Origin: Lachnoclostridium sp. An169
Lineage (GTDB): Bacteria > Bacillota > Clostridia > Lachnospirales > Lachnospiraceae
Length of the DNA stretch: 64,000 nt
Direction of reading: 5' to 3'
NCBI RefSeq assembly: GCF_002160525.1
Contig: NZ_NFKT01000004.1
Location: forward strand, 1 to 64,000
Shown: one piece after another, positions 48,684 through 55,181 of the stretch
Layout of the letters: each line of letters begins with the position of its first letter
Position numbering within the stretch: the first letter of the stretch is position 1
Notes under the pieces: model-generated
The model's input: the letters and a program-made list of their open reading frames with translations, nothing else
Database searches by the model: none
Told to the model about the DNA's origin: nothing
Translations under genes and position numbers: made by a program

Positions 48684-49739
48684 ATGTACAGAAACCAGAC
48701 GAAAGAGATCAGAATCGGCAGTGTGAAGATCGGCGGGGACAACCCGGTGGCGATCCAGTCCATGACCAACACAAAGACGGAGGATGTGGAGGCAACCGTC
48801 GCCCAGATCCTTCGGCTCGAGGCAGCGGGATGTGAGATTATCCGCTGTGCTGTTCCGACCATGGAGGCGGCGCAGGCTCTGGGGGAAATCAAAAAGCGGA
48901 TCCATATTCCTCTTGTGGCGGATATACATTTTGACTACCGCCTGGCAATTGCAGCCATCGAGAACGGGGCGGACAAGATCCGGATCAATCCCGGAAACAT
49001 CGGTTCTCCGGAGCGCGTAAAGGCAGTGGTGGACTGTGCGAAGGAGCATGGTATTCCGATCCGCGTGGGTGTCAACAGCGGATCTCTGGAAAAGCATCTT
49101 CTGGAGAAATACGGGGGAGTCACTGCAGAGGGAATCGTGGAGAGCGCCCTGGACAAAGTACATATGATCGAAGAGATGGGGTACGACAATCTGGTGGTCA
49201 GCATCAAGTCCTCGGATGTGCTCATGTGCGTCCGTGCCCATGAGCTGATCGCAGAGCAGTGTCCTTACCCGCTCCATGTGGGGATTACCGAATCGGGCAC
49301 CGTTTACTCCGGCAATGTGAAGTCGTCCGTGGGTCTTGGAATCATCCTCTACGAGGGAATCGGCAATACCATCCGTGTGTCTCTGACCGGAGATCCGGTG
49401 GAAGAGATCCGCACGGCGAAACTGATTCTCAAAACACTTGGGCTCAGAAAAGGAGGAATCGAAGTTGTCTCCTGTCCCACCTGCGGGCGCACGAAGATCG
49501 ACCTGATCGGTCTTGCCAACCAGGTGGAGGAGATGGTTGCGGATATTCCTCTTGACATCAAAGTGGCAGTCATGGGCTGCGCCGTGAACGGACCGGGAGA
49601 GGCGAAAGAAGCCGATATCGGCATCGCAGGCGGCGTCGGTGAAGGGCTGCTGATTAAGAAGGGACAGATTGTGAAAAAGGTAAAAGAAGAGGAACTTCTA
49701 AATACCCTGCGTCAGGAGTTGTTAAATTGGAACAGGTAA
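48684..49739 (+). CDS. ispG: (E)-4-hydroxy-3-methylbut-2-enyl-diphosphate synthase, flavodoxin/ferredoxin-dependent
   Basis: A 351-residue IspG of the non-mevalonate isoprenoid pathway, converting MEcPP to HMBPP. Motifs are [19 protein letters not shown] at the N-terminus, [16 protein letters not shown] and the [4Fe-4S] cysteines in [11 protein letters not shown] and [10 protein letters not shown]. The ATG at 48684 has AAGGAG upstream. In many Clostridia the order is dxr-rseP-ispG-polC; here the first two are missing next door and only ispG-polC remain. The stretch 48555-48683 contains a small GGACAGGC/GCCTGTTCC hairpin (48612-48633) and no gene. Confidence 0.95.
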
Positions 49740-52700
49740 AGAGCGAAAAAACATTTTTTCATGTATTTCCCACTCTGAAAGTGGACGATGATATGCGGAT
49801 CCTTTTTGCGGATGTGGAGGTGCAGAAGATCACCACCAATTCCACCCGGGATTTCCTGCATGTACATATTTTCAGCCATCATCTGATCCAGAAGAAGCAG
49901 ATCTGGCAGATGGAGCAGCGCATCAAGGAGCAGCTTTTCGGAAAGACGAATGTCTCCGTGAGAATCATGGAGCAGTACCGTCTGTCCGGACAGTATAACC
50001 CCCGTGCGCTCATGGAGGAGTACCGGGAGAGTATTATTCTGGAGCTTAAGGAACTGAGTGTGCTGGCAGCGAATATGTTCGCCCACGCGGATATCCGCTA
50101 TGAGGACGGCAATGTGGTCTGTCTGGAGCTGCTGGATACGATTGTGTCGGAGGGCAGGAAAGAGGAGATTATCGGAAAGCTGGAGGAGATCTTCAGCCAG
50201 CGTTTTCATATCACTGCCGATATCCGCGTGTCGTACCGGGAAGCGGAGAAGAGCGGGTCGCGGGAATACGATGAGCAGAGGATACAGCAGGAGATCAATG
50301 CCATCTTTGAAAGGAGAGCGAGACAGCGCGGCGAAGACAGGCACCGCGGCAGCCAGCCGGCTAAGGAGCAGGAATCTTCCGGGAAGAACGGTGTCACGAA
50401 GAGCTCCTCTTCCGCTCATCCGAAGGGCGGAGCCGGGGCTTCCGGAGGCGGAAAGGACGCCGGCGGGAAGAAAGAATTCCACAGGAAAGATTTCCGGAAG
50501 AAGGATTATGTGCGTCCGGTGAAGATCGGCGATGACCCGAACCTGATCTACGGAAAGAACTTTGACGATGAGCCCATGCCTCTCGAGCAGGTGGTTACGG
50601 AGATGGGAGAGATTACGGTTCACGGCAAGATTGTCAGCTTTGATACCCGGGAGATCCGCAACGAGAAGACGATCGTCATGTTTGCGGTGACGGATTTCAC
50701 GGATACGATTACAGTCAAGATGTTTGCCAGAAACGACCAGCTCCCGGAGATTTTAGGAGAGCTGAAAAAGGGAGCTTTCATCAAGATCAAGGGCGTGACG
50801 ACCATCGACAAGTTCGACGGAGAACTGACCATCGGTTCCATCACGGGCATCAAGAAAATCGGGGACTTTACCGTTTCCCGCCAGGACCTGAACCCGGAGA
50901 AGCGGGTGGAGCTTCACTGCCATACGAAGATGAGCGATATGGACGGAGTTTCCGAGGTGAAGGATATCGTAAAGCGCGCCCACGACTGGGGACATCCCGC
51001 CATTGCCATCACGGATCACGGCGTGGCCCAGGCTTTCCCGGACGCCAACCACTACATCGAGACGCTGGACAAGGATGATCCTTTCAAAGTGATCTACGGT
51101 GTGGAGGGCTATGTGGTGGACGATATGACGGATATCGCGGTCAATGCCGGGGATCAGCACCTGGACGATACCTATATTGTGTTCGATATCGAGACCACCG
51201 GCTTCAGCGCGATCAACGACCGGATCATCGAGATCGGTGCGGTCAAGGTGGTAAGAGGAGAGATTACGGACCGGTTCAGTACCTTTGTGAATCCTCAGCG
51301 GCCGATCCCCTTTGAAATCACCAATCTGACGAGCATCACCGACGAGATGGTGATCGACGCGCCCCCCATCGATGTGATTCTGCCGCAGTTCCTCGAATTT
51401 GTCGGCGATGGCGCTCTGGTGGCGCACAATGCGGGATTTGATGTGGGATTCATCGAACAGAACTGCCGCAATCTCGGAATCGAGCAGAAATTTACCTATG
51501 TGGATACGGTGGCGCTGGCCCGTGTGCTTCTGCCCACGCTGTCCAAGTACAAGCTGAATATTGTGGCAAAGGCTCTCGGTATTTCCCTGGAGAACCACCA
51601 CCGCGCCGTGGACGATGCCGGGGCGACGGCGGAGATCTTCGTGAAATTCGTGGAAATGCTCAAAGACCGGGAGATTACCACGCTTAAGGAGATGAATCAT
51701 TTCGGAGACCGCAATGTGAACGCGATCCGGAAGATGACTACCCACCATATCATTATTCTGGCGAAAAATGATATCGGCAGGTACAATCTCTATCAGCTGA
51801 TCACAGCCTCCCATCTGACTTACTATGCAAGGCGGCCGCGTATTCCGAAAAGCCTGTTGAATGAACACCGGGAGGGGCTGCTTATCGGAAGCGCCTGCGA
51901 GGCGGGAGAGCTGTACCGCGCCGTCCTGGAGAAACGGTCCTCGGAACAGATTGCAAGGCTGGCGGATTTTTACGATTACTATGAGATTCAGCCTCTGGGG
52001 AACAACCGATTCATGATCGGAAGCGACAAGGTTCCGGAGGTGAGTTCGGACGAGGACTTAAAAGCGCTGAACCGCCAGATCGTAGAGCTGGGGGAAAAGT
52101 TCAACAAGCCCGTTGTGGCGACCTGCGATGTCCATTTCCTGGATCCGGAGGACGAGGTGTACCGTCGGATTATCATGGCAGGGAAAGGCTTTGATGATGC
52201 GGATACACAGCCCCCGCTGTTTTTGCGGACAACAGATGAGATGCTGGAAGAGTTCTCTTACCTGGGCTCGGCGAAGGCCCATGAGATCGTGATCGAAAAT
52301 CCCGCGAAGATCGCGCAGATGATCGAGAAGATCTCGCCGGTCAACCCCAACAAGTGTCCGCCGGTTATCGAGAATTCCGATCAGGAGCTGAGGGATATCT
52401 GTTACCGGAAAGCCCATGAGATGTACGGCGAAAACCTGCCGGTACAGGTGGAGAGCCGCCTGGAAAAAGAGCTTAACTCCATTATTTCCAACGGCTACGC
52501 CGTGATGTATATCATCGCCCAGAAACTGGTATGGAAATCCAACGCAGACGGATATCTGGTAGGTTCCCGTGGATCGGTCGGGTCTTCCTTTGTGGCCACC
52601 ATGGCGGGAATCACGGAGGTTAATCCCTTAAGCCCTCACTATTACTGTAAGAAATGCCATTACAGCGACTTCGATTCCGAGGAAGTTAAGGCATTCGCCG

Positions 52701-54289
52701 GGGGCTGCGGATTCGACATGCCGGATAAAACCTGCCCGGTGTGCGGGGAAAAACTTGTGAAGGCGGGATTCGACATTCCGTTCGAGACTTTCCTCGGATT
52801 CAAAGGAGACAAGGAGCCGGATATCGACCTGAACTTTTCCGGAGACTACCAGGCTAAGGCGCACAAGTATACAGAGGTTCTCTTCGGCGAGGGACATACC
52901 TTCAAGGCGGGAACTATCGGAACCCTGGCGGACAAGACTGCCTACGGTTTCGTGAAGAATTATTATGAAGACCACGGGCAGAGAAAACGCCGCTGCGAGA
53001 TCGAGAGGATCACGGAAGGGTGTACCGGAATCCGCAGAAGTACCGGGCAGCATCCGGGAGGTATCGTCGTGCTTCCACACGGACACGACATCAATGAGTT
53101 CACCCCGGTGCAGCATCCGGCAAACGACATGGAGTGCGGAATTACCACAACTCATTTCGACTACCACTCCATTGACCATAACCTTCTGAAGCTGGATATT
53201 CTCGGACACGATGATCCCACCATGATCCGTACCCTGGAGGACTATATTACATCCGACGCCATGGACAATGAATATAATGCGGAACATCCCTTTATCGCAA
53301 CCGACATTCCCCTGGATGACAGGCAGGTGATCGAGCTGTTCCACGGCACGGAAGTGCTCGGCATCAAGCCGGAGGACATCGACGGCTGCAAGCTGGGCTG
53401 TCTCGGAATTCCCGAGTTCGGTACGGATTTCGTTATCCAGATGGTGGAGGATACAAAGCCCCAGACCCTTTCCGACCTGATCCGTATTTCCGGTCTGTCC
53501 CACGGGACAAATGTGTGGCTGGGAAACGCCCAGGAGCTCGTCAAATCGGGCAAGGCGACCATTTCCACCGCCATCTGTACCCGCGACGACATCATGATCT
53601 ACCTGATCAACCAGGGGGTGGACAGCGCCCAGGCGTTCACCATCATGGAGAGCGTCCGTAAGGGTAAGGGACTCAAACCCGAGTGGGAAGAGATCATGAA
53701 GGAAAACAATGTTCCGGACTGGTACATCTGGTCCTGTAAGAAGATCAGCTACATGTTCCCGAAAGCCCATGCGGCTGCGTATGTCATGATGGCATACCGC
53801 ATCGCCTACTGCAAGATCAACTATCCGCTTGCCTACTATGCGGCTTACTTCGGCATCCGTGCCGACGCCTTCTCTTATGAGATCATGTGCCAGGGCAAGG
53901 ACAAGCTGGACTACTATATGAAAGACTACAAGCGCCGCAGCGATTCCCTGAGCAAAAAGGAGCAGGATGTCATGAAAGACATGAAGATCGTGCAGGAGAT
54001 GTATGCGAGGGGATTCGAGTTTATGCCTATCGATATCTACCGCGCCAAGGCAAAGATGTTCCAGATCATCGACGGAAAGCTCATGCCTTCCCTGGCAAGC
54101 ATCGAGGGAATGGGCGATAAGGCGGCAGAGGCGGTGGAGGAGGCGTCCAAGGACGGCCCTTACCTGTCACTGGATGATTTCCGCCAGAGAACCAAGGTCA
54201 GCAAGACCGTCATCGACCTGATGAACGATCTGGGGCTGTTCGGGGACCTGCCCGAAAGCAACCAGCTGTCCCTCTTTGATTTTACGTAA
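49727..54289 (+). CDS. polC: DNA polymerase III alpha subunit, PolC type
   Basis: A 1520-residue Gram-positive replicative polymerase. Order: N-terminal domain (1-180), a low-complexity linker (about 190-265, Gly/Ser/Lys/Arg-rich), OB domain (about 285-385), PHP domain split around a proofreading exonuclease ([15 protein letters not shown] near 395; [23 protein letters not shown] near 485), the polymerase core with [17 protein letters not shown], a zinc site CKKCHY...CPVCG (about 970-1005) and catalytic aspartates in PDIDLNFSG (about 1030), then a helix-hairpin-helix and C-terminal domain. The start is TTG at 49727, 8 bp after AGGAG and 13 bp inside the ispG end, which implies coupling. The last codon and stop lie inside a large inverted repeat. 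Confidence 0.95.
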
Positions 54290-54534
54290 AAATTAAGCTT
54301 GTGTTTACAGATAAGGTCCGTCCCCGGCAGGGGCGTCATGACGCAGGACCGTTCCGCTTTACCTCAAAGATTGGAATGTTTGTAACGCCATCCTGCATGT
54401 TCGTGCAGAGGCACTCCATACAGGATGACTAACAAACAGAACCAATGCTTTTCGGAACGCTCTCACTTAAAGTCCTGCTCTCATGACGCCCCTACCGGGG
54501 ACTCACTTTATCCGTACCCCAACTTATTTTTTAC
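54286..54534. repeat. 249-bp rod-like inverted repeat starting at the polC stop codon (structured RNA or palindromic mobile relic)
   Basis: The two halves fold back on each other through ten helices. Outermost is GTAAAAA with TTTTTTAC (54286-54292/54527-54534). Then come TAAG-TTG/CAACTTA, GATAA/TTATC (54310-54314/54508-54512) and a 22-bp helix with a single C/A mismatch (54320-54341/54481-54502). Next are GCAGGAC/GTCCTGC (54343/54472), CGTTCCG/CGGAACG (54350/54453, with a 12-nt bulge at 54460-54471), ATTGG/CCAAT (54370/54442), TGTTTGT/ACAAACA (54377/54432) and CATCCTG/CAGGATG (54389/54421). It closes with GTGC-AGAG-GCAC at the apex (54403-54414). Nothing in it looks protein-coding. The outline resembles 6S-like rod RNAs or a MITE; I do not recognise the family. 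Confidence 0.75.
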
Positions 54535-54553
54535 TTCATGGGAAAAACTGTTT

Positions 54554-54626
54554 CTTTCTTATAGCGATAACGAAATCCCCTGTCAGGGGATGTATGTGAG
54601 TCGGTATAAGAAAGTTTAATTTTTTC
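54554..54626 (+). terminator. Composite hairpin with U-tract: terminator or aptamer-like leader
   Basis: A 10-bp basal stem (CTTTCTTATA 54554-54563 with TATAAGAAAG 54605-54614) encloses a second, GC-rich hairpin (ATCCCCTG 54575-54582 with CAGGGGAT 54584-54591) and single-stranded flanks. It is followed by TTTAATTTTTT. It lies 20 bp after the large inverted repeat and 58 bp before the ECF sigma gene. It may end polC transcription or control readthrough into the sigma operon. Confidence 0.6.
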
Positions 54627-54683
54627 AATTTCTCTGTCAGGATTCGGGGAGATGGTGTGTCTAATCAGGTGAAAGGGGGATCA

Positions 54684-55181
54684 ATGATGCCGGCAGAAGA
54701 AAACCTTTTGGACAGACTGATGAATGAATATGGAGACGATATTCTGCGGGTGTGCTGCCTGTATCTGAAAGACTACCATCTTGCCGAGGACGCGGTTCAG
54801 GAGACATTTATCCGGGCAATGCGGTCATACGGCGGGTTTGAGCACCGGTCAAAGGAGAAGACATGGCTTACCCGGATTGCGGTCAACTGCTGCAAGAACA
54901 TTCTTCGGAACAGATGGTACAGGACAGGAATGGATGAGCTTGACGAGAATCTTTCCGTACAGGGCAATGATCCGGTGGAACAGCTGATCGAGCAGGAGGG
55001 CATTTCGCAGGGGATTTTAAGGCTGGATCCGGAGGAGCGGGAGATCATTCTTCTCTACTATTACCAGGAACTTCGGATGAAGGAAATCGCATCCATAATC
55101 GGCACGTCTGAAAACGCGGCTGGGCAACGGCTCAGCAGAGCGAGAAAGAAACTGCGAAGAATTCTGGAAGGAGAAGTGTAA
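54684..55181 (+). CDS. ECF-type RNA polymerase sigma factor
   Basis: A 165-residue sigma factor with region 2 (DILRVCCLYLKDYHLAEDAVQETFIRAMRSYGGFEHRSKEKTWLTRIAVNCCKNILRN) and region 4 (LRLDPEEREIILLYYYQELRMKEIASIIGTSENAAGQRLSRARKKLRRIL). It lacks regions 1 and 3, as in the extracytoplasmic-function group. The start may be either of two consecutive ATGs (54684 or 54687) after AAAGGGGG. The gene for its likely membrane partner follows after 3 bp. Confidence 0.9.
   Translation: MMPAEENLLDRLMNEYGDDILRVCCLYLKDYHLAEDAVQETFIRAMRSYGGFEHRSKEKTWLTRIAVNCCKNILRNRWYRTGMDELDENLSVQGNDPVEQLIEQEGISQGILRLDPEEREIILLYYYQELRMKEIASIIGTSENAAGQRLSRARKKLRRILEGEV

What the first reader, a model, noticed from the sequence alone, without database searches (positions are those of the whole stretch)
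54286..54534. Rod-like 249-bp inverted repeat that begins inside the polC stop codon
Almost every base of this stretch can be placed in one fold: ten nested helices, one of them 22 bp with a single mismatch, separated by small internal loops and one 12-nt bulge, closing on a GTGC-AGAG-GCAC apex. This goes far beyond an intrinsic terminator. The outer stem uses the polC stop codon, so folding of the mRNA end or termination could be tied to polC translation. Known rods of this size are 6S-like RNAs, and palindromic MITEs also look like this. Within each long arm a CCCC-N4-GGGG hairpin can form instead, so two alternative folds exist. I do not recognise the family.
Basis: partly seen in the sequence, partly recalled or inferred. 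Interest (0 to 1): 0.7.

Follow-up and report, generated by a model that had tools for sequence, protein, structure and literature searches.

The report
Giant palindrome replacing a gene-end terminator
The rod-like palindrome after polC is one copy of a family of very large, paired hairpin elements scattered through the gut-bacterium genus Mediterraneibacter, which sit at gene ends and here stand where related species have an ordinary transcription terminator.

Summary
The fold is real (z = -12, 0 of 200 shuffles as good), but it is neither a 6S-like RNA nor unique. It is one unit of a dispersed family: 9 matches in this genome, matches in 44 of 58 genomes of its genus, Mediterraneibacter, 66 in one complete 2.7-Mb genome, and none in 245 other genomes drawn from the order. 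Units share a 113-nt core on the window's minus strand with covarying helices and invariant bulges, and close neighbours form divergent pairs (36 of 36 distinct pairs). At a site shared by 11 species the core is 93% identical, the arms 73%, yet 98% of pair cells hold. G.U exceeds A.C on the minus strand, so one strand seems to act as RNA or single-stranded DNA. Element ends fall on gene stop codons (33 of 46 ends; 154 of 3000 random positions). At polC two related species have an ordinary terminator where this genome has the element, which now supplies the stop. Best reading: a giant, genus-restricted, BIME-like palindrome that displaces terminators; the enzyme that moves it was not found.

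The parts
54286..54534 (.).
   Evidence: fold z -12.2, inverted repeats
54350..54460 (-). Conserved 113-position core of the family (sense strand = window minus strand)
   Evidence: match to covariance model R1, 117.5 bits, E 4.3e-29
54461..54471 (-). Conserved one-sided bulge, TTTAAGTGAGA in sense orientation
   Evidence: sequence; conserved in the orthologues
54356..54369 (-). Conserved internal loop strand CTTTGAGGTAAAGC in sense orientation
   Evidence: sequence; near-invariant columns
54403..54414 (-). Apex hairpin GTGC-CTCT-GCAC (sense); stem covaries between copies
   Evidence: helix 5: 3 of 4 pairs with changes on both sides
54541..54626 (.). Hairpin 2 of the element, without a core; ends in a T-tract
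   Evidence: inverted repeat I2; resembles the core-less second hairpin at C8 (by eye)
54287..54289 (+). polC stop codon, supplied by the end of the element
   Evidence: polC ends ...GATTTTTAA in G006 and G016 but ...GATTTTACGTAA here
49727..54289 (+). polC, the gene whose 3' end abuts the element
54657..55181 (+). Downstream sigma-factor gene; same neighbour of polC in G006 and G016
   Evidence: Pfam Sigma70_r2 and r4_2; sequence after polC

Best explanation
The rod is one hairpin unit of a genus-restricted, dispersed, paired palindromic element that works like a giant BIME. In the full form two rods of roughly 200-250 nt lie in divergent orientation, sense 3' ends outward. One strand of each rod (the window's minus strand) folds into a shape with invariant bulges that is kept by selection, which suggests recognition as single-stranded DNA or RNA. 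The element sits at gene 3' ends with its end repeat on or next to the stop codon and takes the place of the native terminator. At polC it stands where relatives have an intrinsic terminator, supplies the stop codon and, by inference, now ends polC transcription. Shown: the family, pairing, covariation, strand bias, stop-codon abutment, absence of the native terminator at polC. Inferred: that copies move as a strand-specific hairpin handled by an unidentified enzyme, that displacement happens on insertion rather than later, and that the element terminates transcription.
For: Family: 9 matches in G000, 44 of 58 genus genomes, 66 in G028, 0 of 245 others in the order. Structure: 17 of 30 pairs (A1) and 21 of 78 pairs (A2, 11 species, one site) change on both sides and stay paired, none of 500 shuffles as high. 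Conservation at that site: core 93.3%, coding flank 82.9%, arms 72.9%. Strand: G.U to A.C 158:86 in arms, 100:57 in inner core (104 units); 26 to 7 with 7 ties in 40 dissimilar units. Geometry: 36 of 36 distinct close pairs divergent; in G028 31 divergent pairs take up 62 of the 66 cores. Position: 33 of 46 ends on stop codons against 154 of 3000 random positions; 58 of 92 non-redundant units have a convergent frame ending 60-200 nt beyond the core, control 372 of 1960. Empty sites: polC in G006 and G016; the L111 gene pair in G008, 76 bp apart with a hairpin between.
Against: No mobilising enzyme found; RAYT and Rpn genes do not fit. No target-site duplication. No two strains of one species were compared, so movement is inferred from distribution. 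Only two sites (polC, L111) have the same gene neighbours on both sides with and without the element. The simple scan finds no terminator on the plus strand around the rod. One covariation measure on A2 (further pair types) is not above shuffles (142 of 500).
Confidence: 0.6

Rival explanations
1. A structured RNA gene family: the sense (minus) strand is transcribed as a discrete RNA of about 250 nt that acts in trans, and the copies are paralogous RNA genes.
For: Covariation and the G.U bias on one strand; invariant bulges.
Against: Promoter-like sites are not above chance around the units. Copy number differs from 0 to 66 matches between species of one genus. Placement on stop codons of varied genes is not expected of RNA genes. 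No Rfam match.
Confidence: 0.17
2. An ordinary MITE: a deletion derivative of a DNA transposon, cut and pasted by that transposon's enzyme.
For: Terminal inverted repeats, many similar copies, nested guests and core-deleted forms.
Against: No target-site duplication. No transposase flanked by these ends found; the IS630-like genes inside two copies have their own ends. A plain MITE does not explain covariation, strand bias or stop-codon abutment.
Confidence: 0.12
3. Terminators that grew in place: native terminator hairpins lengthened by palindrome-extending errors, with arm-to-arm repair, and copies homogenised by gene conversion.
For: The element fills the space between stop codons; one site has inverted flanks around it as if set in a native hairpin (L134).
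Against: A shared core and end repeats at unrelated loci need copying between loci; related species have unrelated sequence at the same sites; arm-to-arm repair predicts no strand bias and would remove, not keep, the bulges.
Confidence: 0.08

Closest known systems
REP / BIME / REPIN elements with RAYT (TnpA-REP) transposases (PMC8266576, passages read; others seen as listings)
   Same: Dispersed extragenic palindromes; two hairpins in inverse orientation; strand-specific hairpin with a conserved bulge; restricted to one lineage.
   Different: Units of about 250 nt instead of 20-50 nt; no GTAG tag seen; invariant internal loops inside a rod; sits directly on stop codons; the genus has RAYTs, but those read are flanked by other, short palindromes.
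MITEs
   Same: Terminal inverted repeats, no gene of its own in the basic form, many copies.
   Different: No target-site duplication, no parent transposon found, strong selection on the fold, genus-restricted.
ERIC / RU intergenic repeat units of enterobacteria (PMC2759123, listing and start of abstract; palindromic nature recalled)
   Same: Intergenic repeats of 100-170 bp described as small mobile sequences.
   Different: About half to a fifth of the size of the elements here; the paired rods, stop-codon abutment and strand bias are not in what I saw of that paper.
Intrinsic (Rho-independent) terminators
   Same: Hairpin with A and T tracts at the sides, right after a stop codon, in place of a terminator in two relatives.
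   Different: Ten times longer, mobile-like family with conserved loops and a conserved core; terminator activity untested.
6S RNA
   Same: Long rod-like fold (recalled).
   Different: No covariance-model match; many copies at gene ends.

Membership tests
[quoted passage not shown]
   Rod of 249 nt; no GTAG tag noticed in the alignments (by eye)
REP/BIME/REPIN-RAYT | Two hairpins in inverse orientation | tested here: met
   36 of 36 distinct close pairs divergent; 31 pairs in G028
REP/BIME/REPIN-RAYT | RAYT gene flanked by the same palindromes | tested here: not met
   15 loci with long Y1_Tnp proteins read: none holds the core of this family; 13 hold GGACGTAGT repeats, 2 hold GTGCCGTGTACTTT repeats. 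Elements of weaker similarity were not excluded
REP/BIME/REPIN-RAYT | Strand-specific recognition of the folded hairpin | tested here: inconclusive
   Sequence bias for one strand; binding cannot be tested here
MITE | Terminal inverted repeats | tested here: met
   G028 ends AAATTTGTA(G/T)TTGTTGG
MITE | Target-site duplication | tested here: not met
   0 of 23 elements at 6 nt or more; at 4 nt 1 against 0.99 in shuffles, at 5 nt 1 against 0.17
MITE | Autonomous transposon with the same ends | tested here: inconclusive
   Genes inside or beside some copies have their own ends; genomes were not searched with the end repeats alone (one search failed)
6S RNA (Rfam) | Match to the covariance model | tested here: not met
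   No match at gathering score in the window; none of the six weak matches is 6S
Intrinsic terminator | GC-rich stem followed directly by a T-tract on the gene strand | tested here: inconclusive
   Simple scan finds none on the plus strand of 54200-54720, but its loop and stem limits exclude long rods; T-tracts close both hairpins
Intrinsic terminator | Ends transcripts in vivo | not testable with these tools
   needs term-seq or a reporter

The most novel reading that the evidence does not exclude
A new class of selfish element that specialises in replacing transcription terminators: it spreads as a folded single strand (ssDNA or an RNA copy), lands on the stop codon, removes the native terminator and stands in for it, so that the host gene comes to depend on it. 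More than one rod family may compete for the same gene ends in this genus.
Probability: 0.3. Interest if true: 0.85.

Novelty: new variant of a known kind. Interest (0 to 1): 0.62.

Why it matters
If right, the 3' ends of bacterial genes can be taken over by large mobile hairpins that then provide the stop codon and probably the terminator. One complete genome with 31 paired copies gives a natural system in which the old question of how extragenic palindromes spread, and why they sit at gene ends, becomes directly testable, and the invariant bulged rod on one strand is a concrete bait for finding the enzyme.

Tried and rejected
RAYT as mobiliser: proteins with a Y1_Tnp domain are in 49 of 58 genus genomes. 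The 15 loci with long ones that I read do not hold our core; they hold other short palindromes. G028, richest in elements, shows one Y1_Tnp match only, in a 159-residue frame (IS200-like in my reading).

Rpn (PF04754) as mobiliser: in G028 all 6 genes lie beside elements, 5 of them between two. But G004, G036 and G015 (34, 30 and 21 core matches) have no PF04754 match and G066 (32) has one, so it does not look required.

IS630-like transposases inside two G028 copies: nested guests with other ends.

Phage or plasmid origin: no match in the phage or plasmid collections; no viral contig with the pattern.

Target-site duplication: none. Insertion into the loop of a native hairpin: one case of 23 (L134); otherwise flank complementarity is as in shuffles. 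Promoters for a sense RNA: not clearly above chance.

The first G.U count was biased because my pattern fixes bases of the outer core helix; one search leaves those positions out and the bias remains. The MFE difference (sense lower in 184 of 193) partly reflects fixed loops; with loops replaced, the arms alone favour sense in 33 of 40.

Rows dropped: chance pattern hits L161, L164, L169, L217 and also L179, L232; in the 11-species set the L202 subtype and the second, inverted units of L030 and L049. Of six doubtful named loci (L161, L164, L169, L179, L217, L232) only L164 passed my unit filter and was folded; it is not this rod. In one search only 23 G028 elements with both ends recognised were used, out of 31 pairs. 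Of 30 polC loci fetched, L305 was not recognised and L292 breaks off 42 nt after polC.

Literature: searches list no report of this family; the library holds only open-licence papers. I read passages of PMC8266576 and PMC2864571; all other papers were seen as listings with the start of the abstract.

Full report
Observation. The stretch folds as described. As RNA the plus strand of 54270-54550 has -117.4 kcal/mol (z -12.2; none of 200 shuffles as good), the minus strand -138.9 (z -11.9). The long arms 54306-54341 / 54481-54516 are 86% complementary. The polC stop TAA is 54287-54289, inside the outer arm. A second, smaller hairpin follows at about 54541-54626.

A family, not a singleton. BLAST of the 249 bp in the same genome (G000, 4.85 Mb) gives further copies on contigs C88 (two, inverted), C45 (two, one without its apex), C51 and C8. 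Of 61 genomes (G000 included) 21 match, all in the same genus; the 24 genomes of other families do not. I aligned 30 copies (A1) and built a covariance model (R1). R1 finds 44 of 58 genomes of the genus, G000 with 9 matches, which adds C3 and C4, and 66 matches in the complete genome G028. In 246 genomes drawn from the order only G000 matches, so 0 of 245 others, among them other genera of the same family; stricter filters were used there. Contig lengths tie handles to names (G007 C1, 302259 bp, M. glycyrrhizinilyticus An427; G020 C10, 50754 bp, M. catenae SW178), so I take the window to be from a Mediterraneibacter. Phage, plasmid and viral collections gave nothing.

Anatomy. The conserved part is a 113-position core on the window's minus strand (54350-54460), which I call sense. 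Its outer helix GCGTTCCG/CGGAACG, a one-sided loop CTTTGAGGTA[A/G]AG, a bulge TTTAAGTGAGA just outside, and a GA/GAA internal loop below the apex are largely conserved, while the inner stem changes but stays paired. Among all loci held, 36 of 36 distinct neighbouring pairs closer than 900 bp have sense strands pointing apart. In G028 31 such pairs take up 62 of 66 cores, most with core starts about 455 or 655 bp apart. There the pair makes an element of about 760 bp with a central palindrome and end repeats AAATTTGTA(G/T)TTGTTGG. In the window only one unit has a core; the partner is the core-less hairpin, as at C8:80606 (by eye).

Selection on the fold. On A1, 17 of 30 pairs have changes on both sides that keep pairing (500 shuffles: mean 10.6, none as high; slid structures at most 7), and 98.1% of cells are paired. 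One site, after a gene that I read as an acyl-CoA-dehydratase activase (no family search run), is occupied in many species. For 11 of them the core is 93.3% identical, the 3' coding flank 82.9%, the arms 72.9%, yet 97.8% of pair cells hold and 21 of 78 pairs change on both sides (shuffles 10.8 +/- 1.9, none as high; slid at most 5); further pair types are not above shuffles there (142 of 500). Gene conversion between copies could help keep the core alike, and arm-to-arm repair could keep pairing, but neither should favour one strand. Leaving out positions fixed by my search pattern, G.U exceeds A.C on the sense strand 158:86 in arms and 100:57 in the inner core (104 units). In 40 mutually dissimilar units 26 lean to G.U, 7 to A.C, 7 tie (one-sided sign test p 0.0007), and arms alone fold better on the sense strand in 33 of 40. 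So the sense strand seems to act as RNA or single-stranded DNA.

Place in the genome. On the sense 3' side a convergent open frame of at least 100 codons ends within 125 nt of the core in 129 of 170 units; on the 5' side in 11 of 170. Many of those units are near copies; in 92 non-redundant units 58 have such an end at 60-200 nt, against 372 of 1960 random positions. In G028, for the 23 elements with both ends recognised, a stop codon of a frame of 60 or more codons lies at the boundary at both ends in 13, one end in 7, none in 3: 33 of 46 ends, against 154 of 3000 random positions; in 21 ends the stop starts 1-2 bases before the end repeat and overlaps it. There is no target-site duplication.

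Empty sites. The PolC C-terminus is found in 55 of 58 genomes. Of 29 polC ends read among 30 loci fetched, only G000 has the core or half of it within 400 nt (one locus breaks off after 42 nt). G006 and G016 have the same neighbours (polC, then the sigma gene) with what looks like an ordinary terminator right after ...GATTTTTAA. In G000 the sequence reads GATTTTACGTAA, PolC gains one threonine, the element supplies the stop, and recognisable common sequence resumes before the sigma gene (in A3, gap placement inside the spacer is not meaningful). At the G028 site L111 the same convergent gene pair lies 76 bp apart in G008, around a hairpin with A and T tracts, against an element from stop to stop in G028. 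At most other G028 sites tested against G008 gene order differs, so they show only that the element is absent there.

Mechanism. Shown: dispersed family, divergent pairing, selected fold with strand bias, placement on stop codons, element in place of the polC terminator. Inferred: copies spread as a folded single strand handled by an enzyme not yet known, and the element acts as terminator. RAYT, Rpn and IS630-like proteins were considered and not supported. Promoter-like sites for a sense RNA were not clearly above chance.

Against what is known. It works most like BIMEs/REPINs (inverse hairpins, strand-specific, bulged; PMC8266576, passages) but fails the size, tag and RAYT-flank criteria, so I do not file it as a REP. 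It has MITE-like ends but no target duplication. It matches no Rfam family in the window. Literature searches listed no report of it.

Verdict. A real and, as far as these searches show, undescribed family of giant paired palindromes that hold gene ends in one bacterial genus. It is more interesting than the single rod suggested; the mode of movement is the open part.

Noticed in passing
L358-L372 (e.g. L363, L365): Genus RAYT-like Y1_Tnp proteins lie beside short palindromes GGGGACGTAGTAAAA..TTTTACTACGTCCCC (13 of 15 loci) or GTGCCGTGTACTTT repeats (2 of 15): probably genuine REP systems of this genus.
   Followed up: partly
L382, L322, L324, L315 (after gene stop codons): A second kind of large palindrome sits at gene ends in G008, G006, G016 and G007; in G008 it holds the very site that carries our element in 11 other species. 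A 120-nt piece folds with z -8.6.
   Followed up: partly
L049 (G020:C10:18077-24556): A 6.4-kb segment with ABC-transporter-like genes is bounded by two inverted, nearly identical units at a site where relatives have a single unit.
   Followed up: partly
G028:C1 (172315, 478844, 515359, 782280, 844145, 2166295): All six Rpn-like (PF04754) genes of G028 lie beside elements, five of them between two.
   Followed up: partly
L142, L143: Two different IS630-like transposase genes are inserted at the same TA-rich point inside the central part of the element.
   Followed up: no
L157, L158, L148: Some G028 elements carry a nested palindromic insert of about 190 bp (ATGTCGGGG...CCCCGACAT) in their centre.
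   Followed up: no
window 54350-54471; A2 columns 57-69 with 162-174: The near-invariant GCGTTCC can pair with CGGAACG or, shifted, with GGTAGAGC, so two registers of the lower core are possible.
   Followed up: no
L134 flanks: One G028 element has inverted flanks (ATGTCAAGAGGG / CCCTCTTGACAT), as if set in the loop of a native hairpin.
   Followed up: partly
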